From: Bacteroidota bacterium
GTDB lineage: Bacteria > Bacteroidota > Ignavibacteria > Ignavibacteriales > Melioribacteraceae
Length of the DNA stretch: 64,000 bases
Reading direction: 5' to 3'
Assembly: GCA_018818065.1 (NCBI GenBank)
Contig: JAHISV010000011.1
Coordinates: 124,001 to 188,000 of the forward strand
The stretch's first letter is position 1. Each line of letters begins with the position of its first letter. Of this stretch, positions 1-64,000 are shown in pieces. A program made the translations under genes and the position numbers. The notes under the pieces were generated by a model. That model did no database searches, was not told the origin of the DNA, and saw only the letters and a program-made list of their open reading frames with translations.

Positions 1-870
1 GTAATTCAAAACTATTGTCATCCAATGATTAAAATAACGATGGTTAAGCATAACGTAAAAACCGGAATGATGGATATTGAAGATCTAAAACAAAAAATGA
101 CTAAAAATGTAGCAGGCATTTATTTTGAAAATCCATCTTACCTTGGATTTATTGAAACAGAGGGCAAAGAGATTTCTAAAATAGTTCATAAGAATGGTGG
201 CAAAGTAATTGTGTACGCAGACCCGATTTCATTAGGAGTTTTAACTCCTCCATCAAATTATGGTGCTGATATTACATGTGGTGAAATTCAACCGCTCGGT
301 CTTCACATCAATTACGGTGGCGCTACGGGCGGCTATATTGGTGTTAATGACGATCCCAAACTAGTACAGGAATATCCCTGGAGATTATTTGGTATTGATA
401 AAACAGAAGTAGAAGGCGAATGGGGTTTTGGTGATGTACTTTATGATGACAGAACTTCTTTTGGTAACCGTGAAACAGGTAAAGATTATGTCGGCACAGC
501 CTCTGCTTTATGGGGTATTACCGCTGGTGTCTATCTCGCTTTAATGGGACCTGAAGGAATGAAAGAAGTTGGGACTGTTATCATGCAAAGATCTCAATAC
601 GCAGCAAAAAAAATAAGTGGAATTAAGGGGATTAAAGCTCCGGCAATTGATTCACCTTTTTTCAAAGAATTTATTGTCGACTTCAATAAAACTGGAAAAA
701 CAGTCAGTCAAATTAATAAGGCACTTGAAAAGAAAGGAATATTTGGTGGGAAAGACCTTTCAAAAGAGTTCAAGGAACTTGGTCAAAGCGCTCTTTTTTG
801 TATTACTGAAGAAAACACGAAAGAAGATATTGACAGACTGGTTAGTGAATTAAAAAACATTATTAAGTAA
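1..870 (+). CDS. gcvPA: Glycine dehydrogenase (decarboxylating) subunit 1-like, 5' end outside window
   Basis: C-terminal ~290 residues of the subunit-1 half of a two-gene P-protein, a PLP-fold enzyme that decarboxylates glycine in the glycine cleavage system. The frame is open from base 1, so the start and roughly the first third of the usual ~450 residues lie upstream. The family is recognisable from SLGVLTPPSNYGADI, the following GEIQPLGLH with a glycine-rich INYGGATGGYIG, and VYLALMGPEGMKEVG. It is divergent: the stretch that normally reads like REKATSNICT is here RETGKDYVGTAS, and FGIDKTEVEGEWGFGDV stands where a conserved RIVGET-type segment is usual. The gene sits 32 bp before the subunit-2 gene (17 bp if an in-frame TTG is the start of that gene), so they are probably co-transcribed. 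The assignment to the family is firm; glycine as the substrate is an inference. Confidence 0.8.
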   Translation, partial: VIQNYCHPMIKITMVKHNVKTGMMDIEDLKQKMTKNVAGIYFENPSYLGFIETEGKEISKIVHKNGGKVIVYADPISLGVLTPPSNYGADITCGEIQPLGLHINYGGATGGYIGVNDDPKLVQEYPWRLFGIDKTEVEGEWGFGDVLYDDRTSFGNRETGKDYVGTASALWGITAGVYLALMGPEGMKEVGTVIMQRSQYAAKKISGIKGIKAPAIDSPFFKEFIVDFNKTGKTVSQINKALEKKGIFGGKDLSKEFKELGQSALFCITEENTKEDIDRLVSELKNIIK

Positions 871-49817: not shown

Positions 49818-50378
49818 CTAAACTGCTGATAAAAATACTTCAGCTAATGCTTCAACAAAAAATAAAACGACGAATATTGAATGAAGACGATAATTCTTCC
49901 AAATCGAAAGAGAAATAAACATAAGAACTAATACTGTTGTGGGTAATAGGTTTAATAGGTCTATTGCATTGCTACTCATCGTTCCTACAAATATTTTTGT
50001 GAAAATTGAACTTATAAATACTCCACTCATCAATGCCCAGAAGTAACGATGCTTATTAAAATAAAATACTTTTAAGTCAATACCTTCTTCCGGAATAACA
50101 GACGGAAATACAGAAGAAACCAACAAATAGATTAAAACAAAAATATGTCCATAAAGAAAGAATGATAAGAAATTATTAAACTTAGTTGTGTCGTTTGCTA
50201 TCACCCACCAGTTATTAATTAACATAATAAAAATATACCAAGCTGTAAGTATCGGCAGCCAATGCCATTTTACTCTTTTTCTGGATCTTAAAAGTCTGTT
50301 AAAACCTGAAAATAAATCAGTAAACATTAGACCATAAATAATCGCAATAAGCGTTACTGCAACTTCATTCTGAGACAT
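49818..50378 (-). CDS. Integral membrane protein, unknown function
   Basis: Polytopic protein of 186 residues with five or six hydrophobic helices (near 7-25, 42-60, 72-92, 112-130, 138-155 and 163-183). The loop SGFNRLLRSRKRVKWHWLP and YFNKHRYFWALMSGVF are positively charged. I recognise no family motif. It has no signal peptide and no catalytic signature. It directly follows the attC-like element at 50411-50490 on its 5' side, with a 32-base leader, and is followed by the DUF1569 gene after 10 bp. Together these two could be one two-gene cassette. Confidence 0.7.
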   Translation of the reverse strand: MSQNEVAVTLIAIIYGLMFTDLFSGFNRLLRSRKRVKWHWLPILTAWYIFIMLINNWWVIANDTTKFNNFLSFFLYGHIFVLIYLLVSSVFPSVIPEEGIDLKVFYFNKHRYFWALMSGVFISSIFTKIFVGTMSSNAIDLLNLLPTTVLVLMFISLSIWKNYRLHSIFVVLFFVEALAEVFLSAV

Positions 50379-50410
50379 TAAATCACCTTAAAATTATAAT
50401 ATATACTAAG

Positions 50411-50490
50411 TACTATAACGGCGATGCAGTAAAACCGCTGGCACAGTGTTAGCATGCCAAATTTACCCGCCGTTTTGTTAGTAGGGCGTT
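50411..50490 (-). repeat. attC-like element upstream of the membrane-protein gene
   Basis: On the minus strand the unit starts with TACTAAC, followed by AAAACGGCG, and ends CGCCGTTATAGTA, so AACGGCG (50417-50423 on plus) and CGCCGTT (50468-50474 on plus) are inverted repeats, flanked by the TAAC/GTTA cores expected of attC R boxes. The middle holds a GGCA/TGCC stem. The length (~80 nt), position between two minus-strand genes and the short leader to the next ATG fit an integron cassette boundary. Confidence 0.5.
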
Positions 50491-50492
50491 GC

Positions 50493-50527
50493 AAAAAAAA
50501 ACTGTCACTCTGAGCTTGACTCAGAGT
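50493..50527 (-). terminator. Hairpin with T-run after the DUF4180-like fragment
   Basis: ACTCTGAG (50507-50514) and CTCAGAGT (50520-50527) form a perfect stem with a 5-nt loop. On the minus strand the T-run of nine (50493-50501) follows five bases after it. The core TGTCACTCTGAGCTTGA also resembles dispersed repeats seen in many genomes of this phylum. Confidence 0.55.
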
Positions 50528-50593
50528 CTAGAAAAAATAATCAAATCATATACTGAAACGAGTCTGCTACTGTAGTGGCAACAACTACATAAT

Positions 50594-50791
50594 TCAGCTA
50601 TTCATCAACATCTCTTTTGCTTTTGCTGCATCTGCCACAAAAAAGAATTGATTACCTCTGTTGCTCTCAATTATCAATGCCTGCAAACTTTTACTTTTAT
50701 ATTTTTCAAAATCTCCAACTATGGCAATTTTTAGTCTGTAGTTTATACACTTCTGTAATATCTCACCGGCTAATCCACTCTGAGTTTCCAT
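50594..50791 (-). CDS. DUF4180-like protein, N-terminally truncated
   Basis: Short open frame of 65 residues matching the C-terminal half of DUF4180: GLAGEILQKCINYRLKIAIVGDF, then SKSLQALIIESNRGNQFFFVAD. Full-length relatives have ~110-120 residues, with the N-terminal strand-helix part and an FFDL-like segment just before the TGLAGE equivalent; here that segment and everything before it are missing. The ATG at 50791 lies at the point where homology begins, and the 73 bp to the nuclease-helicase gene encode nothing similar. It may be a broken gene or a translated remnant. The family function is unknown. Confidence 0.7.
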   Translation of the reverse strand: METQSGLAGEILQKCINYRLKIAIVGDFEKYKSKSLQALIIESNRGNQFFFVADAAKAKEMLMNS

Positions 50792-50864
50792 CGTATTTAT
50801 TTGAATACATCCACATCATTTTTGATTTCCGTTTCCCTTCGTGTGACTAAGCTCTAAACCTTTG

Positions 50865-52847
50865 TTATGTACTATGAAGTACTGGAATTCCACATGATGT
50901 AAGGTAGTAAAAGATTGGGTCATAGAATTCTGGCAACCGTGTTTCATCCGAAGGGTCTCCTTCAGGTACGAAAATGACCATTCCCTGCCTAGCCCTCGTT
51001 AACAATACACGATATGCATTTAATAAATATCTTTTTCGTACATCATCATTTATATTTTGCCAAACTGTTCCACGGAAAGCCTTATAATCCCAAGAGTGTC
51101 CATTGAATCTTAAATTCGCATCCCATGCTACGCAGGTCCAATCGAGTTCTAACCCTTGAATATCAAACTCAGTTGCAACTTCCTCTAAAAAACCCGAAGA
51201 TCGTATATCATCCCGTCCATTCAAGAACCATGTTTTGGGTTCAATTTCAGATTTGATATGAATACCATATGGTTTCAACCTATAGGCACCTGACGACGCC
51301 GTTACTCCAATCCCTTCACTTCCTCTTGCCTTTTGCTTAAGCCATCGTTTTGCATCTTTTAGGTTACGACTAACATAAATGGGGTATGAATTTTTTAATT
51401 CAGAGAACAGTAAACGAGAGCTATCAATATCATTATCTAGCACAGATTTCACAAAACCAGATACTTTTTCCGATCTAAAAGATCTTATCGATACCGCTAA
51501 ATGTAATTCACTTTTTACCGTTAATTGCTGAGTTGGGAGCATGGAGTAGATGTCATCGCCGATTGAATACTCGCTGTCGGTCAGTTTGTCCGAAATGTAA
51601 ACATCCCAGTTTCTGTAATTATTCCGTAAAGCGTAAAACCACTCAAGTAAACCAGCTTCCCCAGTGTTAATCTCTTGTCCACCACCTATCAAACACACAA
51701 TGATTGACCAATCCTTGTGTCTATCTAAAACACTAATTAGGAACTCTGGTTCGGACATATTGAATCCTGCCAGACCTTTCTTCCTGGACATGAATGCTCT
51801 AGTTTGATTTAATGTCCAAGCCCTCTGCGCCTCGTCAAAAACAGCAACCTTCTCAATAGGTGGTAATTCGGATTGTATTGCATCATCTCGGAAGTGATGA
51901 ATATTTTGGATGAATGATTTTGTTTTTGTTAACGCTTGTGCTTTTGTAATCTGTTCATCCGTCCCTTTTTTTTCATCCACTTCGTTTCGTGCAAGAGCTT
52001 CCTGGAGTACTTGTACTAACGGTCCATTACCCGAAAGGAATACAGCATGCTCATCTGCATCTATATTGTGTCTTTCATTTGCAATATTCAGCCCAGCAAG
52101 TGTTTTTCCAGCTCCTGGCACTCCGGTTACAAAGCAGATTGATTTTCTGCCCATTCTTTTTGAATTTTCTATGATATTTGAGATGGCTTCTGATGTAGCT
52201 CCGAGATTAATAGCGCCTGAGTCTGAACGAGATATTTCTCTAACACTATGCCCTTTATATAATGCTTGTGCGGCTTCAATAATTGTTGGCGTGGGTTTAT
52301 ATATTGAATCAAACCAAGGGACCGGATCAATTTGCTCCTGTTTCTGAATCTCTGAAGTTGCTTCTGATATGACTTCATTGATGTTGTTCTTGTTGGCAAA
52401 AAGTGGCTTATAAATATGATCAGGAAAGTTCACATGGATGTTACTTAACGGTTCAGCTTCAGTTGCGATTACAATTGGGATGATGACTCTATTATGACTT
52501 TGTTCATGAAAATTTTTCAGGTCGATGGAATAGTCCAAGACTTGGTCAACAGCATGCTTTGAGTACTTTGATTCACCAACTTTAAACTCAAGGACAAAAA
52601 TTATCCCCGCATGCAAAAGGATTACATCAACTCTTTTTCCCATCCGGGGTATAGAGTATTCGAATGCAATTGATGCATTATGAAATTGTTCCAGAGAATC
52701 CTTTAAGATACAGATTTGAGATTGCCATGAATTACGCTGCAAATCTTCAAGAGCAAATTCATGATTTCTTGATAGCTCACCTAAAATGAAACTGTTATCA
52801 TCTTTCAAAAATTTTTGAACATCCGCAGAATAGTAAGATCGATTCAT
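50865..52847 (-). CDS. Nuclease-helicase protein: PD-(D/E)XK-like plus DUF2075/Schlafen-3-like helicase domain
   Basis: Soluble protein of 660 residues. The N-terminal ~150 residues have a restriction-endonuclease-like core with D74 (KRVDVILL), then E87-x-K89 (FVLEFKVGE), the PD-(D/E)XK arrangement. The helicase domain follows: Walker A with K248 in VTGVPGAGKTLAGLNIA, Walker B D338-E339 in VAVFDEAQRAW, motif III-like IVCLIGGGQEINTGEAGL, and the C-terminal motif VLLTRARQGMVIFVPEGD (UvrD/Schlafen-like motif VI). Proteins with DUF2075 are frequent in defence islands, alone or with nucleases. This one stands alone, between a truncated small gene and the his operon. A cruciform-type repeat lies just upstream. 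Target is unknown. Confidence 0.88.
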   Translation of the reverse strand: MNRSYYSADVQKFLKDDNSFILGELSRNHEFALEDLQRNSWQSQICILKDSLEQFHNASIAFEYSIPRMGKRVDVILLHAGIIFVLEFKVGESKYSKHAVDQVLDYSIDLKNFHEQSHNRVIIPIVIATEAEPLSNIHVNFPDHIYKPLFANKNNINEVISEATSEIQKQEQIDPVPWFDSIYKPTPTIIEAAQALYKGHSVREISRSDSGAINLGATSEAISNIIENSKRMGRKSICFVTGVPGAGKTLAGLNIANERHNIDADEHAVFLSGNGPLVQVLQEALARNEVDEKKGTDEQITKAQALTKTKSFIQNIHHFRDDAIQSELPPIEKVAVFDEAQRAWTLNQTRAFMSRKKGLAGFNMSEPEFLISVLDRHKDWSIIVCLIGGGQEINTGEAGLLEWFYALRNNYRNWDVYISDKLTDSEYSIGDDIYSMLPTQQLTVKSELHLAVSIRSFRSEKVSGFVKSVLDNDIDSSRLLFSELKNSYPIYVSRNLKDAKRWLKQKARGSEGIGVTASSGAYRLKPYGIHIKSEIEPKTWFLNGRDDIRSSGFLEEVATEFDIQGLELDWTCVAWDANLRFNGHSWDYKAFRGTVWQNINDDVRKRYLLNAYRVLLTRARQGMVIFVPEGDPSDETRLPEFYDPIFYYLTSCGIPVLHST

Positions 52848-52873
52848 TAGTTACCAGATTTTAGAATGTACAT

Positions 52874-52919
52874 AACAGATAGTTATACAGACCAAGTCTA
52901 TATGTCAATTTTATCTGTT
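52874..52919. promoter_or_regulatory. Nested inverted repeat upstream of the nuclease-helicase gene
   Basis: The outer arms AACAGATA (52874-52881) and TATCTGTT (52912-52919) are perfect complements, and the inner arms TATACAGAC (52884-52892) and GTCTATATG (52896-52904) pair with one or two mismatches around CAA. The unit lies 27-72 bp upstream of the start codon and may be an operator or a hairpin in the leader. Confidence 0.4.
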
Positions 52920-53024
52920 ACTAAAAATCAGTTCTTCGCTTCACTCAACAACCATTATTTAACATCCGAGAAAAAAGAAAGAACAATTTTAAGTTAACAA
53001 TTATACAGAGTTGAAGCAATCTTT

Positions 53025-53057
53025 TATTGCATAAGAAATATTTTACACATATCTTTG
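53025..53057 (+). promoter_or_regulatory. Bacteroidota-type promoter of the his operon
   Basis: TATCTTTG at 53050-53057 matches the TAnnTTTG -7 element exactly, and TATTG (53025-53029) stands 20 bases upstream in place of the -33 TTTG element. Transcription would begin near 53063, a few bases before the leader peptide, which fits the attenuator layout. Confidence 0.7.
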
Positions 53058-53082
53058 CCTCTAAATTTACAGAAGACAGGCA

Positions 53083-53151
53083 ATGAACTTAAATTCTTAT
53101 TTGGCATATCATTTACATCATCATTATACCACGATAAATGGAGCCGGATAG
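53083..53151 (+). CDS. hisL: Histidine-operon leader peptide
   Basis: A 22-codon open frame with ATG at 53083 and TAG at 53149-53151. Codons 10-14 (53110-53124) read His-Leu-His-His-His (CAT TTA CAT CAT CAT), four histidines in five codons, in the message just ahead of hisG. The peptide has no other recognisable role. It is the control peptide of an attenuator: when charged histidyl-tRNA is scarce, the ribosome stalls on these codons. A longer frame (53055-53267) overlaps it in another reading frame, but has no His-rich segment and is not supported. Confidence 0.85.
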   Translation: MNLNSYLAYHLHHHYTTINGAG

Positions 53152-53208
53152 GTACAAGTAAAAAAATAGATATTTTTATAAAACCCCGGCATACGTCGGG
53201 GTTTTTTT
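53103..53208 (+). promoter_or_regulatory. his attenuator with competing RNA structures
   Basis: Four segments can be placed. Segment 1, inside the His codons (GGC 53103-53105 and CATTTA 53110-53115), pairs with segment 2 (TAAATG 53135-53140 and GCC 53143-53145). Segment 2 also contains GCCGG (53143-53147), which pairs exactly with CCGGC (53186-53190) as an antiterminator. Segment 3 CCCCG (53184-53188) pairs with segment 4 CGGGG (53197-53201) as the terminator, whose stem extends with A-T pairs and runs into seven T (53202-53208). A ribosome stalled at the His codons frees segment 2, so the antiterminator forms; a ribosome reaching the stop codon covers it, and the terminator forms. Confidence 0.78.
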
Positions 53209-53232
53209 GTTTTAAACATAAGGGGTGTTACT

Positions 53233-54099
53233 GTGAACGGAAATTTGAAATTAGCAATACAACGTAAAGGGCGGTTATCTGATAAGTCGCTGGAACTATT
53301 AAAAGCCTGCGGGCTGGAAATTGATACCTATTCCAACAAGCTGCTTCTCTCGGCTAAAAACTTTAAGCTGGATATTCTTCTCCTTAGGGATGACGACATA
53401 CCGGAATATGTTCAGGATGGCGTTGCGGACATTGGCATTGTAGGTCAGGATGTAATAGCAGAAGACCGCGCCGAGGTAACAGAGATTAAGAAACTCGGGT
53501 TCGGCAAATGCAAATTGATGATCGGCATACCGGAAAGGGAGGAGCTTGCCTCAATTAAGGACCTGGAGGGGAAAACAATAGCCACTTCTTTCCCGAATAT
53601 TCTGGGTGATTACCTTACTGAAAACGAGGTGAAGGCAAAGATAATAGAGCTTAGCGGCTCTGTGGAAATTGCGCCTTCGCTTGGTGTGGCAAATTACATT
53701 TGCGATCTCGTTTCCACGGGTACAACACTAAAGCTTAATCAGCTAAAAAAATCCTTCACGGTTTTTGAATCGCAGGCGGCATTGATAAGCAGGAACAATA
53801 TCAATGGAGATGAAGCAAAGCAAAAACTGCTTACTAATTTATTAAGCAGAATCGATTCAGTTTTATCGGCAAAGAAATCAAACTACTTAATGATGAATGT
53901 TCCCAGCGCAAAACTTGAGAAGGTTGTTGAAATTATTCCTTCACTTAAAAGTCCCACCGTTTTACCTCTTGCTGAAGAGGGAATGGTAGCCGTTCACGCC
54001 GTTATACCAAACGAGACCTTCTGGAACATTGTAGATGACTTAAAGCTTGCCGGAGCTTCCGGAATACTTTTACTACCAATTGAGAATATGATAGCATGA
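53233..54099 (+). CDS. hisG: ATP phosphoribosyltransferase, long form
   Basis: First committed step of histidine synthesis: ATP plus PRPP to phosphoribosyl-ATP. The 288 residues are the length of the long (HisG_L) form, with two periplasmic-binding-like catalytic domains (LAIQRKGRLSDKSLELLKAC, GVADIGIVGQDVI, GKTIATSFPNIL, EIAPSLGVANYICDLVSTG) and a C-terminal ACT-like regulatory domain (~215-288; NYLMMNVPSAKLEKVVEIIP, VHAVIPNETFWNIVDDLKLAG) that binds histidine for feedback inhibition. The GTG start is supported by AGGGG eight bases upstream. No hisZ is needed for this form. Stop codon overlaps the hisD start by ATGA. Confidence 0.97.
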   Translation: MNGNLKLAIQRKGRLSDKSLELLKACGLEIDTYSNKLLLSAKNFKLDILLLRDDDIPEYVQDGVADIGIVGQDVIAEDRAEVTEIKKLGFGKCKLMIGIPEREELASIKDLEGKTIATSFPNILGDYLTENEVKAKIIELSGSVEIAPSLGVANYICDLVSTGTTLKLNQLKKSFTVFESQAALISRNNINGDEAKQKLLTNLLSRIDSVLSAKKSNYLMMNVPSAKLEKVVEIIPSLKSPTVLPLAEEGMVAVHAVIPNETFWNIVDDLKLAGASGILLLPIENMIA

Positions 54100-55379
54100 A
54101 AAAATTATCCTTAAAATCCCTTGAGGGGGCAGAGTATAATAATCTGCTCAAGCGTCCCTCAATTGACAGTGAGAATTCATTCAGCATTGTTAAGCCTATT
54201 CTGCGGAGTATAAAAAACAATGGAATGGCAGCAGTTCTTCAATATTGTGAACAGTTCGATAATCTTTCAGGCAGGGACTTACTTGTCTCAAAAGAGGAGA
54301 TGGAATCTGCAGCAGCTGAATTGCCCTCGAAGGTAAAAGAAGCAATTGATACAGCAGTCAGGAATATTACAACCTTTCACGAGCAGCAGATACCAAAGGG
54401 TTACTCCCTTGAAACTATGCCCGGTGTTGAGTGCTCGCGGGAGTACAGAGCTATTGAGAGTGTTGGTCTTTACATTCCAGGTGGGACGGCGGTGCTTCCT
54501 TCAACCATGATGATGCTCGCCATACCTGCTAGACTTGCCGGGTGTAAAAGAATCGTGGCATGTTCACCCGCCAAAAACGGGGCTGTTAACAGTGCTGTTC
54601 TTTACGCGGCAGGTGTTTGCGGGGTTGATGAGATATACCTTGCAGGAGGCGCCCAGGCTATTGGAATGATGGCTTACGGCACGGAAATAACGGCAAAGGT
54701 TGATAAAATATTCGGACCCGGTAATCAGTATGTTACTGCCGCTAAATCGCTTGTAAGCATCGATACGGAAGGCTGCGCAATAGATATGCCCGCAGGACCG
54801 AGTGAGGTACTTATCATAGCTGATGAATCCGCCGATCCTTCCTTTGTTGCTGCTGACTTATTATCGCAGGCTGAGCATGGGGTGGATTCGCAGTCAATTC
54901 TTCTTACCACTTCAGAGAGTCTTGCTGATAAAGTAATAGCTGAGGTGGATTCACAATTGAAAGAATTGGAGAGAGTGGACATTGCAGCGGAGTCGCTAAA
55001 ATCTTCTTTCATTCTCATAACCAACTCGCTGGATGAGTGTTATGCATTCAGTAATAAATACGCGCCTGAACATTTAATTATCAACACGGCTAATCCTGAA
55101 GTGGTAAATGAGAAAATCATAAACGCTGGTTCTGTATTCCTTGGCGCTTACTCTCCTGAAAGTGTGGGTGATTATGCTTCTGGCACAAACCATTCTTTGC
55201 CGACCTATGGTTATGCCAAATCGTTCAGCGGAGTGAATGTGCTCGACTTTATGAAAAGCATCACCTTTCAGAAATTGACGGAAAAAGGGTTGCAGGAGAT
55301 TGCGGGAACTGTAATTACACTTGCGGAAACTGAAAAACTGCAGGGACATGCAAACGCTGTTAGAGTGAGGTTGAAATGA
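54096..55379 (+). CDS. hisD: Histidinol dehydrogenase
   Basis: Zinc-dependent, NAD-linked enzyme for the last two oxidations to histidine, 427 residues. The signature [16 protein letters not shown] and [20 protein letters not shown] is intact. [18 protein letters not shown] holds the zinc-ligand Gln and His, and the C-terminal [11 protein letters not shown] and [18 protein letters not shown] supply further active-site histidines. ATGA overlap with hisG at 54096 and with hisC at its end (55376) indicates translational coupling across the operon. Confidence 0.97.
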
Positions 55380-56419
55380 ATATAGAAAATCTTGTTCGTG
55401 AGAATATCAAAAAGTTAAAACCATATTCATCCGCTCGTGATAGTTTTCTTGAGGGGACTTTGCTTGACGCTAATGAAAACGGAATAGGGAGTGTGTGGGA
55501 TGAGTACGCCGTACTTAACAGGTATCCTGATCCCAACCACAGAAAATTGCGGCAGGCGGCATCCGCCTATCTGGGTGTAAACGCTGACCAGCTGTTTTTT
55601 GGAGTCGGCTCTGATGAGGTGATTGATCTACTCATAAGAATATTCTGTAAGCCGGAAACGGATTCAATTATGATCACTGATCCTTCTTATGGAATGTACG
55701 AAGTAGCGGCAGATGTAAATGATGTAAAAGTTATCAAAACAGTACTGGATGAGAATTTTCAGCTTGACCTGAATGACATCCGTGAGAAAGTTGAAGCGGA
55801 GACGAAGATTGTCTTTTTGTGTTCACCAAACAATCCCACAGGAAATCTACTGAAGAAGGAAGATATACTTGAATTGGTGAATGACTTAAACTGTCTCGTG
55901 GTTATTGATGAAGCGTATATGGACTTTGCTGAAAGCAATAGTCTTAAAAAAGAAGTGAGGAACTTCGAAAATCTAATTGTGCTGCGCACCTATTCAAAGG
56001 CATGGGGAATGGCCGGAATAAGATGCGGCTTTTCAGTTGCTTCGCCCTACATAACAGAACTATTATACAAGGTGAAGGCGCCTTACAATCTTAATATGAT
56101 GACCCAGAAGGGAATACTGAAAGCTATTGAAAACAAGTCGACAAAAGATAGTTTCGTAAGCACCATTATCAGCGAACGTGAAAAGGTATATAGCGAACTG
56201 GCAAAAATGAGCGGTGTAAAAAAGGTCTATCCATCCGAGGCAAACTTTCTTATTTTTGAGGTCGAAAATCCTGACGAAGTATACCAGACCCTTGTTAAGA
56301 AAGAAGTGATTATCAGAAACAGAAGCAGAATGACCAGACTTTCAGGTTGTTTGAGAGTGAGTATTGGGAATTCTGAGGAGAATGAATTGTTTATTAATGA
56401 ACTGAGAAGGATATTATGA
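55376..56419 (+). CDS. hisC: Histidinol-phosphate aminotransferase
   Basis: PLP-dependent class I/II aminotransferase, 347 residues, converting imidazole-acetol phosphate to histidinol phosphate. The PLP lysine is K208 in RTYSKAWGMAGIRCGF. The N-terminal DANENGIGSVW, and RYPDPNHRKLRQAASAYLGV, FFGVGSDEVIDLLIRIFC, CSPNNPTGNLL and VVIDEAYMDFA are standard HisC landmarks. The C-terminal RNRSRMTRLSGCLRVSIGN carries the phosphate-binding arginines. Both ends overlap the neighbouring genes by ATGA. Confidence 0.97.
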   Translation: MNIENLVRENIKKLKPYSSARDSFLEGTLLDANENGIGSVWDEYAVLNRYPDPNHRKLRQAASAYLGVNADQLFFGVGSDEVIDLLIRIFCKPETDSIMITDPSYGMYEVAADVNDVKVIKTVLDENFQLDLNDIREKVEAETKIVFLCSPNNPTGNLLKKEDILELVNDLNCLVVIDEAYMDFAESNSLKKEVRNFENLIVLRTYSKAWGMAGIRCGFSVASPYITELLYKVKAPYNLNMMTQKGILKAIENKSTKDSFVSTIISEREKVYSELAKMSGVKKVYPSEANFLIFEVENPDEVYQTLVKKEVIIRNRSRMTRLSGCLRVSIGNSEENELFINELRRIL

Positions 56420-57303
56420 ATAAATTAGTCTTAAGCAAGGATGTACTGGAATTGACTTCGGAACGATCTAAAGGATTGATAACCGGACTGAAAAAATTAG
56501 CTGAGTTCAATTTTTCTTTCGAGTACAGTTTTAAGGATGAACCGGTGCTGAAACAAATCTGCATAAATGAGGGGATTGTATTCACTTCTGAGTCTTCAGT
56601 TAAATCTGAAACGGTTTACATTATGAATGGAAGTGAAGTCGCAATTTATATAAAAGATGAGATGGTGAGTTCATTCCCGTATCAAACCTTTACTGATGTT
56701 GCTGATTACATTCAAAAAACTCTGCGCTCATCAAAAAAGGAACGTGTAACGAAGGAAACGAAAATCAGTCTTGCGCTTATGCTTGATGGCTCAGGCAATT
56801 CCACACTTAATACCGGCATTGGTTTTTTTGATCATATGCTTGATCAGATTGCCCGCCATGCGAACCTTGATCTGGAATTATCTGTTGAAGGTGATTTAGA
56901 GGTCGATGAACACCATACTGTGGAAGATGTAGGGATTGCACTTGGCGAGGCTGTGAGAGAGGCGCTGGGGGATAAAAAGGGTATTCAGAGGTATGGTTTC
57001 AAGGTCCCCATGGATGATTGTGTAGCAGAATGTGCCATCGATCTGGGAGGGAGAGGACGACTATTATTTGAAGCCGATTTCCAGCGTGAAAAGGTTGGTG
57101 AGTTCCCGACTGAGCTGGTTGAAGAGTTTTTTAACGGAATATCAGCAGGATTAAAAGCCAACATCTACATCGCGGCAGAAGGAAAAAATGAACATCATAA
57201 AATAGAATCAATTTTCAAATCATTCGCCAAGGCGCTGAATGAAGCGTGCAGATATGACGAAAGAAATAATGGAAGAATACCATCAACAAAAGGTACACTA
57301 TGA
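56416..57303 (+). CDS. hisB: Imidazoleglycerol-phosphate dehydratase with an extra N-terminal domain
   Basis: Mn-dependent dehydratase, 295 residues. The catalytic IGPD part spans about 103-295: GIGFFDHMLDQIARHANLDL, DEHHTVEDVGIALGEA, and NEHHKIESIFKSFAKAL, with all the metal-binding His and Glu motifs. The first ~100 residues (LELTSERSKGLITGLKKLAE, FEYSFKDEPVLKQICINEG, VYIMNGSEVAIYIKDEMV) are not the usual HAD phosphatase, since neither DxDGT nor the following HAD motifs are present. Known bifunctional HisB proteins carry a ~165-residue HAD histidinol phosphatase here. This shorter extension may be a relic or a different domain. The ATGA overlap with hisC is present. Confidence 0.95.
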   Translation: MNKLVLSKDVLELTSERSKGLITGLKKLAEFNFSFEYSFKDEPVLKQICINEGIVFTSESSVKSETVYIMNGSEVAIYIKDEMVSSFPYQTFTDVADYIQKTLRSSKKERVTKETKISLALMLDGSGNSTLNTGIGFFDHMLDQIARHANLDLELSVEGDLEVDEHHTVEDVGIALGEAVREALGDKKGIQRYGFKVPMDDCVAECAIDLGGRGRLLFEADFQREKVGEFPTELVEEFFNGISAGLKANIYIAAEGKNEHHKIESIFKSFAKALNEACRYDERNNGRIPSTKGTL

Positions 57304-57887
57304 TTGCTTTAATTGAATATGGTGCCGGCAACACGGCCTCAGTCTCCAACGCTTTAAACTCGCTGGGGTACGATCACCTGATAACAAACAGGGAAGATGA
57401 AATCATTAAGGCGGATAAAATAATATTCCCCGGCGTGGGTGAGGCTTCATCAGCCATGCGCAGACTTCATATGAATAATCTTTTTAATCTGCTTCGGATA
57501 GTTAAAAAGCCGCTCCTGGGTATTTGCCTGGGTATGCAGCTTCTATGCGAAAGATCGCTGGAAGGAGATGTTGCCTGTCTTGGAATCTTCCCAACGGAAT
57601 CTGAAAAATTTGACAGCACTAAAACAAAAGTGCCTCACATGGGGTGGAATGAAATTGAGATTAAAAAGGAGTCACTCCTTTTCAGTGGAATTGAAAATGG
57701 AGAGTATTTCTATTTTGCTCACTCATTCTATTTACCAATAAATAATTACACCACTTCATCAGCCGTTCAAGATGTTGAATTTACTGCCTCAATGCAAAAG
57801 GATAACTTTTACGGTGTGCAGTTTCATCCTGAAAAATCCGGTGAAGTTGGAATGCGTTTACTCAAAAACTTTGTGGAATTATGCTAA
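57300..57887 (+). CDS. hisH: Imidazole glycerol phosphate synthase, glutaminase subunit
   Basis: Class I glutamine amidotransferase of 195 residues that feeds ammonia to HisF. The triad is C76 in LGICLGMQLLCERS, and the His and Glu of VQFHPEKSG near the C-terminus. EYGAGNTASVSNAL at the N-terminus is the typical start. The ATGA overlap with hisB at 57300 and a 7-bp overlap with hisA show coupling. Confidence 0.97.
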   Translation: MIALIEYGAGNTASVSNALNSLGYDHLITNREDEIIKADKIIFPGVGEASSAMRRLHMNNLFNLLRIVKKPLLGICLGMQLLCERSLEGDVACLGIFPTESEKFDSTKTKVPHMGWNEIEIKKESLLFSGIENGEYFYFAHSFYLPINNYTTSSAVQDVEFTASMQKDNFYGVQFHPEKSGEVGMRLLKNFVELC

Positions 57888-58600
57888 TTATACCATCAAT
57901 CGATATTTTACGGGGCAAGGTTGTTCGCCTTGCTCAGGGTGACTTTAAGAAGGTCACAAATTATGAAGTGGAGCCAATTGAACAAGCAAAACTATTTGAA
58001 TCTTATGGTTACAAACACCTCCATATAGTTGATTTGCTCGGTTCAAAATGTGGTGAAATAACCACCTTAAAAATTATTGATGAGATTAAGAAAAGAACCA
58101 AATTGTCCTTGCAGTTTGGCGGTGGAATAAGATCGTATCAGAATGTGAAAATTCTCATGGAACATAAAATTAATAAAGTAGTTATCGGCTCACTCTCGAT
58201 TAATCAAAAGAATGAGTTTGAAAAAGTCATTAAGGATTTTGGCGCCGATAAAATAACAATAGCGGCAGACGCGCTTAATGGAAAAATTATGGTAAAAGGC
58301 TGGACGGTGGACAGCGGTATTTCCTTATTTGATCATATTGAATACTGCTCCGGTCTGGGAGTTAAAAACTTTCTCTGCACCGATATAAGTCAGGATGGAA
58401 TGCTTGACGGACCAAGTGTTGGACTATACGAAAAAATAATGAAACAATTCCCAAACATAAATCTAACTGCCTCGGGTGGTGTAAGCAGCATGGCTAATGT
58501 TAATAGTCTGATTGCCATTAATATGCACTCCGCCATTATCGGCCGTGCATTTTACGAGAACAAATTAAATCCAAAGGAGCTGGTAAAAATTGGTAAGTAA
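57881..58600 (+). CDS. hisA: ProFAR isomerase
   Basis: TIM-barrel isomerase of 239 residues. The catalytic Asp of strand 1 is in IPSIDILRGKVVRLAQGDF (D8), and the second is in VKNFLCTDISQDGMLDGPS. FGGGIRSYQNVKIL and IGRAFYENKL provide the two phosphate sites. It overlaps hisH by 7 bp and hisF by 11 bp. Confidence 0.96.
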   Translation: MLIIPSIDILRGKVVRLAQGDFKKVTNYEVEPIEQAKLFESYGYKHLHIVDLLGSKCGEITTLKIIDEIKKRTKLSLQFGGGIRSYQNVKILMEHKINKVVIGSLSINQKNEFEKVIKDFGADKITIAADALNGKIMVKGWTVDSGISLFDHIEYCSGLGVKNFLCTDISQDGMLDGPSVGLYEKIMKQFPNINLTASGGVSSMANVNSLIAINMHSAIIGRAFYENKLNPKELVKIGK

Positions 58601-59345
58601 AAGAATAGTACCTTGTTTGGACGTTAAGGATGGCAGAGTTGTAAAAGGTACAAACTTTGTCAATCTGCGTGACGCGGGTTCAGCCGTGGAGTTATCAGAA
58701 CGCTACTATAAAGAGGGTGCCGATGAATTGGTATTCCTTGACATTACTGCCTCCGAGGAAAAGCGGAAGACTCTTCTCGATTTAGTTGTTGAGGTTGCTA
58801 AAGTAATCAGGATCCCTTTTACTGTGGGTGGTGGAATATCGGAGCTGGATGATATTGAAGCTCTTCTGAGAGCTGGTGCTGATAAAGTTTCGCTCAATAC
58901 TTCTATTGTTTATAACCCTGAACTAATTACCGATGCGGCTAATCAATTCGGCAGTCAGGCGGTTGTTGCAGCTATTGATATCAAAAAACTTGATAGTGGT
59001 TACGGTGTTTTTGTGAAAGGTGGCAAGGAAAAAACTGACCTGGATGGTCTTGAATGGTGTAAACGAGTTGTTGAACTTGGTGCTGGCGAAATACTGCTTA
59101 CCTCAATGGACAGAGACGGCACTAAGGAAGGGTATGATGTTGAGTTTCTAAAAGAACTCACCAGTCAGGTTTCTATTCCTGTTATAGCCTCAGGTGGTGC
59201 GGGAACAAAAGAACACTTTCTTGAGGCCTTTGCTCAGGCGGATGTTGATGCCTGCCTTGCGGCAAGTCTGTTCCACTATCAGGAACTGGAAATTGTAAAA
59301 CTGAAAGAGTACCTCTCTGAAAATAACATCAAGGTAAGACTATGA
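58590..59345 (+). CDS. hisF: Imidazole glycerol phosphate synthase, cyclase subunit
   Basis: TIM-barrel cyclase of 251 residues and partner of HisH. The catalytic aspartates are D11 ([13 protein letters not shown]) and the one in VVAAIDIKK near 130. [40 protein letters not shown] and [14 protein letters not shown] are typical. The start is TTG at 58590 inside hisA, with AAGGAG at 58574-58579; it gives the canonical [12 protein letters not shown]-terminus, and no ATG would. Confidence 0.96.
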
Positions 59346-59953
59346 TAAATATTGACGAATTGAATTTCTCAAAACTGAACGATTTACTGCCGGCCATAAT
59401 TGTTGATAAAGATTCGAAACAGGTTTTGATGCTAGGATTTATGAATAGAGAGGCACTTGAAAAAACACTGGAGAGTGGTAAAGTTACCTTTTACAGTCGA
59501 ACCAAAAGTAGATTATGGACTAAGGGTGAAACCTCAGGGAATTTTCTGAATCTGGTTGATATTGCTGCTGACTGTGATAAAGACACACTCCTCATCACGG
59601 TTGACCCGGTTGGATCCGTATGCCATACAGGATCAGATAACTGTTTTAATATTGAGCAGGTTCGAACAAAAGAGAATTTTCTTGAGTATCTGTTCAAATA
59701 TTTGACCAGCAGAAAAGAAGAGCAGCCCGAGGGTTCCTACACCACAAAGCTCTTTCAATCGGGTGAAAACAGGATTATACAAAAAGTGGGTGAAGAGGCT
59801 ATCGAAACTGTTATCGCTGCCAAGAATAATGATAAAGAAGAACTGATAAACGAAATATCGGATCTTATCTATCACCTGTTTGTATTGATGATTGAAAAAG
59901 GAGTCTCTTTAGAGGAGATTACCAAAAATTTATCCAGCCGTCACGGTAAATGA
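59342..59953 (+). CDS. hisIE: Bifunctional phosphoribosyl-AMP cyclohydrolase / phosphoribosyl-ATP pyrophosphatase
   Basis: Fusion protein of 203 residues catalysing steps 2 and 3 of the pathway. The HisI half (1-~108) has FYSRTKSRLWTKGETSGN, ADCDKDTLLITVDPVGSVCH and the zinc cysteines of CHTGSDNCFN. The HisE half (~115-203) has the MazG-like QKVGEEAIETVIAAKN and ELINEISDLIYHLFVLM with acidic metal ligands. ATGA overlap with hisF. It is the last gene of the operon. A loose hairpin AAAACTTA/TAAGTTTT (59993-60027) follows, without a T-run. Confidence 0.97.
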   Translation: MINIDELNFSKLNDLLPAIIVDKDSKQVLMLGFMNREALEKTLESGKVTFYSRTKSRLWTKGETSGNFLNLVDIAADCDKDTLLITVDPVGSVCHTGSDNCFNIEQVRTKENFLEYLFKYLTSRKEEQPEGSYTTKLFQSGENRIIQKVGEEAIETVIAAKNNDKEELINEISDLIYHLFVLMIEKGVSLEEITKNLSSRHGK

Positions 59954-60140
59954 TCTATCATTTAATTTCCTTAAAGAAGAGAATAATACCTCAAAACTTA
60001 TACTACAATAATCTATTCTTAAGTTTTAAGAGAATTTTTCGATAGTTTTATAACAAAACGGTTTTGACTTTCGAGCTGATTGCTTTTAAAAATTTCAAAT
60101 GGTTTTTTTATTTGGTGACTTTTGATTAATATAATGGCAT

Positions 60141-63100
60141 ATGACTAAATTCTATCACATTATTGCTTCTCTTTGTCTGTTATTCTTCGCCAGTGATATC
60201 GTTTCTCAGGACGAACAGTTGAAGTTCAGGCATCTTACTTTCAAGGATGGTTTATCGGTGAATACGGTTTATTCCGTTTTCCAGGATCACCGCGGATTCA
60301 TTTGGATGGCTACCGAAGATGGTCTGGAATTGTATAATGGTTATGAGTTTAAGCATTTCAAAAACGACCCGAATGACAGCACTTCAATAAGCGATAACTT
60401 TACCCGTGATATATGTGAATATCCTGAGGGTAAACTGTGGATTGCTACAGATGGGGGGGGATTAAATCTTCTCGATCTGGCGACAGAAAAATTTACACGG
60501 TTCACCTATGATCCAGGTAATAGTAATTCAATCAGCAGTAATGAAATCAGATCATTGTTCCTGGATAATGATAAAACCATATGGATTGGAACGGACGGAG
60601 GGGGATTAAACAGGCTCAATCCTAAAACCGGTACTTTTGAAAAATTCCTTTTTTATAATGCGGACTCTTCAGAAATTATTAACTCCAGAATCTGGGATGT
60701 GTATGCCGATACCTCCGGGGCTTTGGATGGTTATGAAGATGTTTTATGGATGGCAACTAACAGAGCCGGTATATGTCTATTCGATAAAAAGAGGAATAAA
60801 TTTTCACACTTTACGACAGAAAATGATTTGTCAAGTAATAATGTCAGAAAGTTTTTTTCTAATCCTGTCCGTCCAAATGTAATTTTTGTTGCCACAGAGG
60901 GGGGCGGGTTAAATAAGGTAGGAACTGATTATTTTGATTCAGGATCAAACCGTACCTACAAATTGAAGTTCAACAGTAATCTTATAAAGCATCCATCTTT
61001 GCCTCCTAATATCTCAAATTCCATTTGGGGCTTGGGTTATGTAAATAGGGGCGGTAGCAATTATTTATTGATTGGTACTCTAGGCGATGGATTAATATTT
61101 TACAATTTATTGAATGACAAAGTTGAGTATACATTTGAGCCGACCAGCGGTGAAGAGTCAATCAGCGATGATTCAATAATAGAAATATTTAAGGATAACA
61201 GAGGTGATTTATGGTTCGGAACAGACGGGGGAGGAGTAAGTTACTACGGTAATCATTCAAAGCAGTTTGATCATATTAAATATAATCCGAATAATTCCTG
61301 GGGTCTGAACAATAATTTGATATGGTCCATAATTGAAGATGTAAATGGAGATATCTGGATAGCAACGGACGGTGGTGGGATCAATATTATAAACAAGGTG
61401 ACAGGTAATGTTGTTTATCTTACAAGTGAAAACAGCGAATTGCCTGATAATAGAATTTCCGAAGTTTATGAAGATCCAACCCAAAAAGGACGAATTTATT
61501 GGATTGGCACATGGAACAATGGACTCTGCAGGTACGATAAAAAACTAAATACTTTTAAAATTTATTCCAATGACAGGAATAATGAAAATTCACTCTCGTA
61601 CAATTTAATAAAGGATATTATTAAGGATAATCTTAATCCCGATGATCACATCTATTGGATATCCACAGGCTCCGGGCTAAATAAGTTTAATGCTAAAACC
61701 GAAGAATTTACTCGTTATTCATATTCAAAAGAAGATCCTGCTTCAATTGGTCATAACTTTATTTGGCAACTATACATTGATAGGGATGGTGATTATTGGT
61801 GTGCTACAAAAGGCGGGCTAAACCAATTCTTTCCTGAATCGGGTAAGTTTTTGCGTTATCAAAATATACCGGGCGACACGACCAGTATAACTCACAACTA
61901 TGTCTTTAATATTTATGAAGATAGCAGAGGTCACCTTTGGTTAGGAACCTTTGGTGGTGGACTTAATAGATTTGATAGAAAAACAAAAAAGTTTACCTCT
62001 TTTAGAGAGAAGGATGGTTTAGCTAATGATGTAGTTTACGGTATATTGGAGGATGATAACGGTGATTTATGGGTTAGTACAAACCTGGGAATAACCAAGG
62101 TTTTACTAAATCCCTCAACCCCTCATCCTGATGATATTCTTTACAGTTTAAAATCCTATGGATCTGTCAAGCCCATAATCCGATTTAGGAATTATGATGT
62201 TGAGGCAGGACTGCAAAGTAATGAATTTAATTCCGGAGCATTTTTTAAGAGTAGGAATGGTGAACTTTATTTTGGTGGTATTAACGGTGTTACTAAATTT
62301 AATCCGGATAATATCATTGAAAGCCCTTTCAGCCCAAGTATTTTCATTACTGGTTTTAATAAGTTTAATAAGGAAGTTAAGCTCGATTCTTCAATTACTT
62401 CCATCCAAACGCTTCATTTGGACTATACTGATTACCTCTTGAATTTTAAATTTGCCGCGCTGGATTATAGTAATCCGCAAAAGACCAAATATGCATACAC
62501 AATTGAAGGCTTTAATGATCAATGGATTGACCTGGGCGCAAAACGTGAGTTTGACCTTACGAATCTCGACCCGGGGAAATACGTTTTGAAAATTATTGGC
62601 ACAAATAGCGAAGGAATCTGGAATACTGAGGGTACCAAATTAAATATCATTATCAGTCCGCCATTTTGGGGCACAACCTGGTTTAGAATTCTTTTTGTCT
62701 TTATTCTTAGCCTGATTATTTGGTTTGTATATTCATGGCGCACAAAGATTATCAGAACCAGAAACCGCATTTTAAGAGAAGTTAATTCTAAACTAAATGA
62801 TGAAATACGCAGCAGAAAAAGTGCAGAGGAAGCTCTAATAATAAGTGAAGAAAGATTCCGGAGTTTGTTCGAAAATTCGGCTTTTGGAATTTATCGATCG
62901 AATATTAACGGTGAGCTATTGATGGCAAATCCATCCCTTTTGCAGATGCTTGAATATCCTAATCCTCAATACTTTAATAAAATTAGTATCGAAAGAGATC
63001 TTTATCTTTATCCTGTGATGAGACAGAAGTTTTTTCATCAGCTGAAGAAAAACGGTGTCGTTAATGGATATGAGGCATTCTGGAAAAAAAATAATGGTGA

Positions 63101-63944
63101 AGTTATTGCAGTTCGCGAATATGCCCGGTTAATTAAGCATGAAGAAACCGGTGAGCAATATATCGAAGGAGCTATCGAAAACATCACAGAACAAAAAAAT
63201 GCACAAAAAGCCACTCTTGAAGCAAAGGATAAAGCCGAGCGTTCTGACCAGCTAAAATCAGAATTCCTTGCTCAGATGTCACATGAAATAAGAACACCAA
63301 TAAATACCATTCTTAGTTTCTCAGCCCTGGTGCAGGATGAACTCAGGGATACAATTCCTGATTATCTTCAGGATAGTTTTTCAAGTATAAATTATGCCGG
63401 CAGAAGAATAATCAGAACGATTGACATGCTATTAAACATGTCTGAAGTTCAAACCGGTACCTACGAGATTAAATTACGGGAGCTCGATTTGATGAATATG
63501 GTTCTGGAACCTGTAGTCCAGGAACTTTCAATTCTTGCTACAGATAAAGACCTTCAGTTAAATTTATCCCGCCATGAATCATGCAAAAATTGTATCCTGA
63601 ATGTTGATGAATACACAACCACACAAATATTTACCAATTTAATACATAACGCGATAAAGTATACTGATGAAGGTCAAATTGATATTATCCTTTATGCCGA
63701 TGATAATAACCAAATAGCCGTCGATATAAAAGATACAGGTATAGGTATTTCTGATGAATATAAGGAAATAATATTTAGTCCTTTTACACAGGAAGAACAA
63801 GGCTATACACGACGTTTTGAGGGCACCGGGCTTGGTTTGGCGTTAGTCAAGCAGTATTGTAAATTGAACAAAGCCGAAATTAACCTGATAAGTGAAAAGA
63901 ACAAGGGAAGTGTGTTCACAGTAGCTTTTACAGAACAAGCTTAA
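60141..63944 (+). CDS. Two-component propeller / PAS sensor histidine kinase
   Basis: Transmembrane sensor of 1267 residues. Signal peptide MTKFYHIIASLCLLFFASDIV. Fourteen or so propeller repeats with the recurrent WIGTDGGGLNRL pattern (~30-700), a Y_Y_Y domain (~765-825; GFNDQWIDLGAKREFDLTNL), and one membrane helix near 840-860 (ILFVFILSLIIWFVYSW) are followed by a short coiled coil, a PAS domain (~905-1025; FRSLFENSAFGIYRSNINGE), HisKA with H1048 (LAQMSHEIRTPINTILSFSA) and HATPase_c (FTNLIHNAIKY, GTGLGLALVKQYCKLN). Unlike classical hybrid sensors it has no receiver or AraC domain at the C-terminus, and no response regulator follows in the window. It resembles the carbohydrate-sensing hybrid systems only in its periplasmic part. 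Confidence 0.92.
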   Translation: MTKFYHIIASLCLLFFASDIVSQDEQLKFRHLTFKDGLSVNTVYSVFQDHRGFIWMATEDGLELYNGYEFKHFKNDPNDSTSISDNFTRDICEYPEGKLWIATDGGGLNLLDLATEKFTRFTYDPGNSNSISSNEIRSLFLDNDKTIWIGTDGGGLNRLNPKTGTFEKFLFYNADSSEIINSRIWDVYADTSGALDGYEDVLWMATNRAGICLFDKKRNKFSHFTTENDLSSNNVRKFFSNPVRPNVIFVATEGGGLNKVGTDYFDSGSNRTYKLKFNSNLIKHPSLPPNISNSIWGLGYVNRGGSNYLLIGTLGDGLIFYNLLNDKVEYTFEPTSGEESISDDSIIEIFKDNRGDLWFGTDGGGVSYYGNHSKQFDHIKYNPNNSWGLNNNLIWSIIEDVNGDIWIATDGGGINIINKVTGNVVYLTSENSELPDNRISEVYEDPTQKGRIYWIGTWNNGLCRYDKKLNTFKIYSNDRNNENSLSYNLIKDIIKDNLNPDDHIYWISTGSGLNKFNAKTEEFTRYSYSKEDPASIGHNFIWQLYIDRDGDYWCATKGGLNQFFPESGKFLRYQNIPGDTTSITHNYVFNIYEDSRGHLWLGTFGGGLNRFDRKTKKFTSFREKDGLANDVVYGILEDDNGDLWVSTNLGITKVLLNPSTPHPDDILYSLKSYGSVKPIIRFRNYDVEAGLQSNEFNSGAFFKSRNGELYFGGINGVTKFNPDNIIESPFSPSIFITGFNKFNKEVKLDSSITSIQTLHLDYTDYLLNFKFAALDYSNPQKTKYAYTIEGFNDQWIDLGAKREFDLTNLDPGKYVLKIIGTNSEGIWNTEGTKLNIIISPPFWGTTWFRILFVFILSLIIWFVYSWRTKIIRTRNRILREVNSKLNDEIRSRKSAEEALIISEERFRSLFENSAFGIYRSNINGELLMANPSLLQMLEYPNPQYFNKISIERDLYLYPVMRQKFFHQLKKNGVVNGYEAFWKKNNGEVIAVREYARLIKHEETGEQYIEGAIENITEQKNAQKATLEAKDKAERSDQLKSEFLAQMSHEIRTPINTILSFSALVQDELRDTIPDYLQDSFSSINYAGRRIIRTIDMLLNMSEVQTGTYEIKLRELDLMNMVLEPVVQELSILATDKDLQLNLSRHESCKNCILNVDEYTTTQIFTNLIHNAIKYTDEGQIDIILYADDNNQIAVDIKDTGIGISDEYKEIIFSPFTQEEQGYTRRFEGTGLGLALVKQYCKLNKAEINLISEKNKGSVFTVAFTEQA

Positions 63945-64000
63945 TTTTACTTCAACCATAATTATATTATAATTGTCATGCTACAATTCTGTTTGAACAA

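What the first reader, a model, noticed from the sequence alone, without database searches (positions are those of the whole stretch)
53025..53232. Complete histidine attenuator with leader peptide in a Bacteroidota-type bacterium
Seen directly: a promoter-like TATCTTTG, a 22-codon leader with four His codons in five, a segment 1:2 pairing that overlaps those codons, a GCCGG/CCGGC antiterminator, and a CCCCG/CGGGG terminator with seven T immediately before the hisG ribosome site. The mutually exclusive pairings use the same segments as in the enterobacterial his leader, but the peptide and spacing are different. I know of no named Rfam model for such leaders outside Gammaproteobacteria, so this could be an undescribed leader family.
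Basis: partly seen in the sequence, partly recalled or inferred. Interest (0 to 1): 0.78.

Follow-up and report, generated by a model that had tools for sequence, protein, structure and literature searches.

The report
Histidine attenuator before the hisG operon
This is a real, evolutionarily conserved RNA switch that lets the cell make its histidine-synthesis enzymes only when a ribosome stalls on histidine codons in a tiny upstream peptide; the principle is textbook, but this version belongs to an RNA group that has no database model, and similar switches turn out to sit in front of most hisG genes sampled across its phylum.

Summary
The genome is an Ignavibacteria-type member of Bacteroidota. 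About 60 relatives' hisG genes carry the same layout. The antiterminator covaries (47 doubly changed cells against 24 in shuffles, 0/500). The leader stop codon always lies within 15 nt of the end of segment 2, so a terminating ribosome covers it. Best explanation: classical ribosome-mediated transcription attenuation by His-tRNA supply. One correction: the 1:2 'protector' stem is strong in the window but not conserved with its own partner, so only the 2:3 / 3:4 switch plus the ribosome is supported as the core. No Rfam family matches. A survey of 80 hisG genes across the phylum found His-rich leaders in 65 (control 1/80), with sequence-unrelated but similarly built switches in other families. 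Leader-peptide attenuation in flavobacteria, with an unassigned hisG 5' element, is already published, so this is a new member of a known kind. No expression data exist here.

The parts
53027..53057 (+). Bacteroidota-type promoter: TTG (53027-53029) and -7 box TATCTTTG (53050-53057)
   Evidence: Sequence; TAnnTTTG enriched at this place in relatives, 38/59 against 4.8 expected. Start site itself not measured.
53083..53151 (+). Leader peptide ORF, ATG..TAG, MNLNSYLAYHLHHHYTTINGAG, His codons at 53110-53112 and 53116-53124
   Evidence: equivalent His-rich ORF before hisG in the Ignavibacteria relatives L001-L052.
53096..53115 (+). Segment 1: CUUAUUUGGC (53096-53105) and UCAUUUA (53109-53115); can pair with segment 2 and 53135-53141 when no ribosome covers it
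   Evidence: Folding (z -2.25); not conserved with its own partner in relatives.
53143..53153 (+). Segment 2 (GCCGGAUAGGU): 5' arm of antiterminator; overlaps the last codons and the stop codon
   Evidence: conserved and covarying with segment 3; stop codon within -15..+13 nt of its end in 59 of 59 sequences.
53183..53190 (+). Segment 3 (ACCCCGGC): 3' arm of antiterminator (CCGGC 53186-53190, plus ACC 53183-53185 with GGU 53151-53153) and 5' arm of terminator
53180..53208 (+). Intrinsic terminator: AAAACCCCGGC-AUAC-GUCGGGGUUUU and U tract 53202-53208
   Evidence: (1 found, 0.2 expected); conserved in relatives.
53220..53225 (+). Ribosome site AAGGGG of hisG
   Evidence: Sequence.
53233..54099 (+). 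hisG (ATP phosphoribosyltransferase, long form), first gene of the regulated operon
   Evidence: TIGR00070 and TIGR03455 over cut-off.
54096..59953 (+). Rest of the his operon, overlapping ORFs read as hisD, hisC, hisB, hisH, hisA, hisF, hisIE (names from the translations, not profile-tested except hisG)
   Evidence: ORF list.

Best explanation
A cis-acting, ribosome-mediated transcription attenuator that senses charged His-tRNA. Transcription starts just after TATCTTTG and the leader ORF is translated as it emerges. When His-tRNA is short the ribosome stalls on the His codons (53110-53124). Its front edge stops several nucleotides before segment 2, so segment 2 (GCCGG) pairs co-transcriptionally with segment 3 (CCGGC) before segment 4 is made, the terminator cannot form and RNA polymerase enters hisG. 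When His-tRNA is ample the ribosome runs to the UAG at 53149, where it physically covers segment 2; segment 3 then pairs with segment 4 and transcription stops at the U tract. If the leader is not translated, a 1:2 stem may hide segment 2 and also favour termination. Shown here: the anatomy, conservation, covariation of 2:3, stop-codon geometry. Inferred: transcription start, stalling, termination and response to histidine.
For: His-run ORF unique in 64 kb and absent from 320 kb of control sequence but present before hisG throughout the Ignavibacteria relatives. Antiterminator complementarity higher with the own partner than with partners from other species (1026 against 895 +/- 18, maximum 950 of 300 permutations; shuffled 617); 47 doubly changed pair cells against 23.8 in shuffles (0/500), and slid registers all much lower. 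Region 2..3 folds below its shuffles in all 56 sequences, mean z -3.0. Stop codon always within -15..+13 nt of the segment 2 end; last His codon mostly 18-24 nt before segment 2. Constraint folding: stalled ribosome gives P(2:3)=1.0 before segment 4 emerges; ribosome at stop gives P(2:3)=0 and the terminator. The same genome has a Trp-codon leader with a terminator before trpE.
Against: At equilibrium the terminator wins in every state, stalled ribosome included, so antitermination must be kinetic, as assumed for known attenuators; not tested. The window's antiterminator is among the shorter ones (5 contiguous GC pairs plus 3 after a bulge). The 1:2 stem is not conserved. No expression, term-seq or ribosome data.
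Confidence: 0.92

Rival explanations
1. Three-part attenuator only: segments 2, 3 and 4 plus the ribosome; no functional 1:2 protector stem. In the absence of leader translation the operon would then be read through. (A variant of the best explanation, not exclusive of its main claim.)
For: 1:2 complementarity is no better with own than with permuted partners; its place varies; many relatives lack a strong stem.
Against: In the window the stem is strong (z -2.25) and mean z over relatives is about -1, P(segment 2 paired upstream) > 0.5 in 49 of 56, so a loose protector role is possible.
Confidence: 0.5
2. Translational attenuation or leader-coupled reinitiation: the hairpin mainly controls hisG translation, not transcription.
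For: Leader and hisG are close (81 nt); reinitiation at leader genes has been proposed for Bacteroidetes (PMC4833913).
Against: The hairpin is followed by T7 and lies before, not over, the AAGGGG site; the distance is far from the 11-14 nt at which reinitiation was proposed; canonical terminator conserved.
Confidence: 0.05
3. Chance or non-functional remnant: a His-rich spurious ORF next to a terminator of an upstream unit.
For: None beyond the shortness of the ORF.
Against: Conserved across about 60 species with covariation; the upstream gene (50865-52847) is on the other strand, so no upstream unit needs this terminator.
Confidence: 0.01

Closest known systems
Enterobacterial his attenuator (Rfam RF00514 His_leader)
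   Same: Logic: His-codon leader peptide, mutually exclusive antiterminator and terminator, placed before hisG.
   Different: No match of the Rfam model (none at E <= 1 over 50000-64000); 4 His codons in 5 rather than 7 consecutive (E. coli number from general knowledge); shorter switch, no conserved 1:2 stem, unrelated sequence.
Flavobacterial 5' elements incl. hisG (Flavobacterium psychrophilum, PMC9723704)
   Same: Same phylum; leader-peptide attenuation proposed at amino-acid operons; conserved hisG element without Rfam hit. Sampled family f24 (probably Flavobacteriaceae, my guess) has the same layout.
   Different: f24 elements use CUCARGCG : CGUYUGAG as 2:3 helix and another terminator; the passages read do not mention Ignavibacteria.
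His attenuators of Firmicutes (B. cereus group, Peptostreptococcaceae, Erysipelotrichales; PMC9413887)
   Same: 3-5 His codons in a row, terminator and antiterminator hairpins, no RF00514 match.
   Different: Different phylum; reported in only 17 genomes there, whereas here it is the commonest arrangement in the sample of the phylum.
Rfam RF01692 Bacteroid-trp
   Same: Amino-acid operon leader in Bacteroidetes listed in Rfam (PMC2864571).
   Different: Tryptophan, not histidine; does not match here.

Membership tests
Ribosome-mediated transcription attenuator (kind) | Short translated ORF rich in codons of the operon's product | tested here: met
   (ORF and conservation; translation itself not shown).
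Ribosome-mediated transcription attenuator (kind) | Intrinsic terminator between leader and first gene | tested here: met
Ribosome-mediated transcription attenuator (kind) | Antiterminator exclusive with terminator, supported by covariation | tested here: met
Ribosome-mediated transcription attenuator (kind) | Geometry: stalled ribosome leaves segment 2 free, ribosome at stop covers it | tested here: met
   (assuming a footprint of about 13 nt downstream).
Ribosome-mediated transcription attenuator (kind) | Read-through responds to His-tRNA supply | not testable with these tools
   Needs experiment.
Rfam RF00514 His_leader | Covariance-model match | tested here: not met
   No match at gathering score nor at E <= 1.
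Rfam RF00514 His_leader | Conserved 1:2 stem at the His codons | tested here: inconclusive
   Present in the window, not conserved with the own partner, weak average tendency.
Rfam RF01692 Bacteroid-trp | Covariance-model match | tested here: not met
   the trp leader of the same genome (L175) also has no Rfam match.

The most novel reading that the evidence does not exclude
Leader-peptide attenuation is the ancestral or default control of hisG in Bacteroidota. The His-codon leader is kept while the output module has been replaced repeatedly: unrelated terminator/antiterminator sequences in different families, a possible Rho-type or other terminator-less output in two families (f26, f16), and replacement by a TrpR-family (YerC/HisR-like) regulator gene in another family of the same class (f3).
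Probability: 0.45. Interest if true: 0.6.

Novelty: new member of a known kind. Interest (0 to 1): 0.4.

Why it matters
It adds a well-supported, unmodelled his leader family in Ignavibacteria, and shows that leaders of this kind precede hisG in most sampled Bacteroidota (65 of 80) although Rfam has no family for them. It therefore predicts histidine control for many uncultured lineages and gives a comparative set in which one sensor (His codons) is combined with different output structures.

Tried and rejected
Rfam search at gathering and permissive thresholds: only chance-level matches (rnk_pseudo and BSnc120 mainly fit the terminator hairpin). Conserved 1:2 stem: tested and not supported. 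Conserved hairpin inside the 2-3 spacer: mean z -0.2, not supported. Other GCCGG-N-CCCCGGC sites in the genome: five besides this one, not pursued. Thr leader: no leader in the roughly 70 nt before the aspartokinase/homoserine dehydrogenase gene. leuA-like genes: no leader seen. First scan of own-genome loci was on the wrong strand for the minus-strand genes and is superseded. Vitreschak 2004 (PMID 15135544) not held; from memory its abstract mentions candidate attenuators in some Bacteroidetes/Chlorobi.

Full report
WHAT IS THERE. The region 53025-53232 holds, in order, a Bacteroidota-type promoter element (TATCTTTG 53050-53057, with TTG 53027-53029), an ORF 53083-53151 encoding MNLNSYLAYHLHHHYTTINGAG, a GCCGG at 53143-53147 overlapping its last codons, an intrinsic terminator 53180-53208, an AAGGGG ribosome site and the GTG start of hisG at 53233. 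hisG is confirmed by TIGR00070 and TIGR03455 and is followed by overlapping or closely spaced ORFs up to 59953 that read as the rest of the his pathway. The gene upstream (50865-52847) runs the other way, so the terminator belongs to no upstream unit. The ORF is the only short one in 64 kb with at least 4 His in 5 codons, and 320 kb of related loci outside the leader contain none with 4 in 7. The terminator is the only one in its region (expected 0.2).

RELATIVES. hisG relatives are about 60-68% identical in Ignavibacteriales, Melioribacteraceae and similar genomes, so the window is an Ignavibacteria-type Bacteroidota. Nearly every one of the close loci (L001-L052) has a His-rich ORF of mostly 15-30 codons ending about 65-117 nt before hisG, then a hairpin of the type CCCCGGC..GYCGGGG with a T run. 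The peptide C-termini (GAG, AGL, CRR and so on) read the same RNA element GCCGG in different frames, which suggests that the RNA, not the peptide end, is what is kept.

COVARIATION. With 60 sequences, the best helix between segment 2 and segment 3 scores 1026 in total against 895 +/- 18 when segment 3 is taken from another species and 617 with shuffled segment 2 regions. On an ungapped alignment of the nine antiterminator pairs (50 distinct rows; the spacer left out), 81.8% of cells pair, 47 cells have both sides changed (shuffles 23.8 +/- 3.9, 0/500) and all slid registers are far lower. Examples: UUGUACCGG:CCGGUACAA (L047), GGUGUCGG:CCGACACU (L032), AAGCGCCGG:CCGGCGCUU (L046). Caveats: the register was chosen by complementarity, which inflates the share paired but not the comparison with permuted partners under the same choice; six poorly matching or unlike rows were left out of that alignment; relatedness is not modelled.

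GEOMETRY AND FOLDING. The stop codon lies between -15 and +13 nt of the segment 2 end in 59 of 59 sequences, and the last His codon is 12-27 nt (mostly 18-24) before it. That is what the ribosome-occlusion model needs. In constrained folding of the window, a ribosome on the His codons leaves the antiterminator fully formed in a transcript that has not yet made segment 4; a ribosome at the stop codon abolishes it and the terminator forms. In complete transcripts the terminator is always the more stable, so the switch must act during transcription.

In the window a long 1:2 stem does form (53096-53115 with 53135-53152). Across relatives the complementarity of segment 2 to the upstream leader is no better than with permuted partners (628 against 614 +/- 13), and the leader folds only slightly below its shuffles on average (mean z -0.99). 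I therefore regard 2:3 / 3:4 plus the ribosome as the supported core and the 1:2 stem as optional.

KNOWN OR NEW. No Rfam family matches. The mechanism is the classical one. Leader-peptide attenuation at amino-acid operons and a conserved Rfam-less hisG element were reported in Flavobacterium psychrophilum (PMC9723704). Rfam lists RF01692 Bacteroid-trp (PMC2864571). His attenuators without RF00514 similarity were described in a few Firmicutes (PMC9413887). I found no paper in the held library on Ignavibacteria his leaders. From memory, Vitreschak et al. 2004 mention candidates in Bacteroidetes/Chlorobi; that paper is not held. Hence: new member of a known kind.

PHYLUM SURVEY. Of 80 hisG upstream regions chosen over two dozen families of the phylum, 65 have a His-rich short ORF within 260 nt, against 1 of 80 on the reverse strand. 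The choice leaned towards families whose hisG matched well, so it is not an unbiased sample. In f1 and f2 (19 of 19) it is followed by a terminator. f24 (12 of 12), f19, f21, f28 and f42 have the same layout with unrelated sequences. f26 (8 of 8) and f16 (4 of 4) have the His leader but no intrinsic terminator by the same scan. f3, in the window's class, has no leader but a YerC/TrpR-family gene ending just before hisG (TIGR02531, PF01371); the HisR repressor of Firmicutes belongs to the TrpR family (PMC9413887). Family labels are anonymous in the tool; any taxon name for them is my guess.

SAME GENOME. trpE of this genome is preceded by a leader ORF with AWFWW and a terminator CCCTTCTTAGT-N-ACTGAGAAGGG-T7, so his is not the only operon with this type of control. 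No such leader was seen at the thr and leuA-like genes.

Noticed in passing
L130-L135, L165, L166 (phylum family f26): hisG leaders with 4-11 His codons, start codon mostly 5-8 nt after a TAnnTTTG box (nearly leaderless), no intrinsic terminator, then about 100-125 nt that is mostly unstructured, C-rich (21-30%) and G-poor (5-11%) against 17 +/- 3.5% and 16.8 +/- 3.6% in 24 control intergenic regions of the same family: a candidate Rho-dependent his attenuator. Speculative.
   Followed up: partly
L111-L114, L064, L071, L072, L074, L077 (f16; Sphingobacteriales such as Pedobacter, Olivibacter): His-rich leader followed by a GGCGAT that mirrors the ATCGCC in the leader and a GTTTCTACGTGAAAC-like hairpin but no intrinsic terminator; output mechanism unknown.
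   Followed up: partly
L056 2664-2948; L107 70-354 (minus); also seen in L053, L058, L066, L076, L106, L108: In another family of the same class the His leader is missing and a YerC/TrpR-family gene (TIGR02531, PF01371) ends just before hisG: possible swap of attenuator for a HisR-like repressor.
   Followed up: partly
G000 contig C4 near 206.4 kb (L167, L175): Trp leader MKNTKVTYHTYSTQAWFWWLMDNTRDDSVE with terminator and T7 before trpE of the same genome, no Rfam match.
   Followed up: partly
window 50865-52847 (minus): 660-aa protein with Schlafen group 3 helicase domain (PF09848), divergent from the his operon.
   Followed up: no
window 60141-63944: Sensor protein with Reg_prop propeller, Y_Y_Y, PAS and histidine kinase domains, directly after the his operon.
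   Followed up: no
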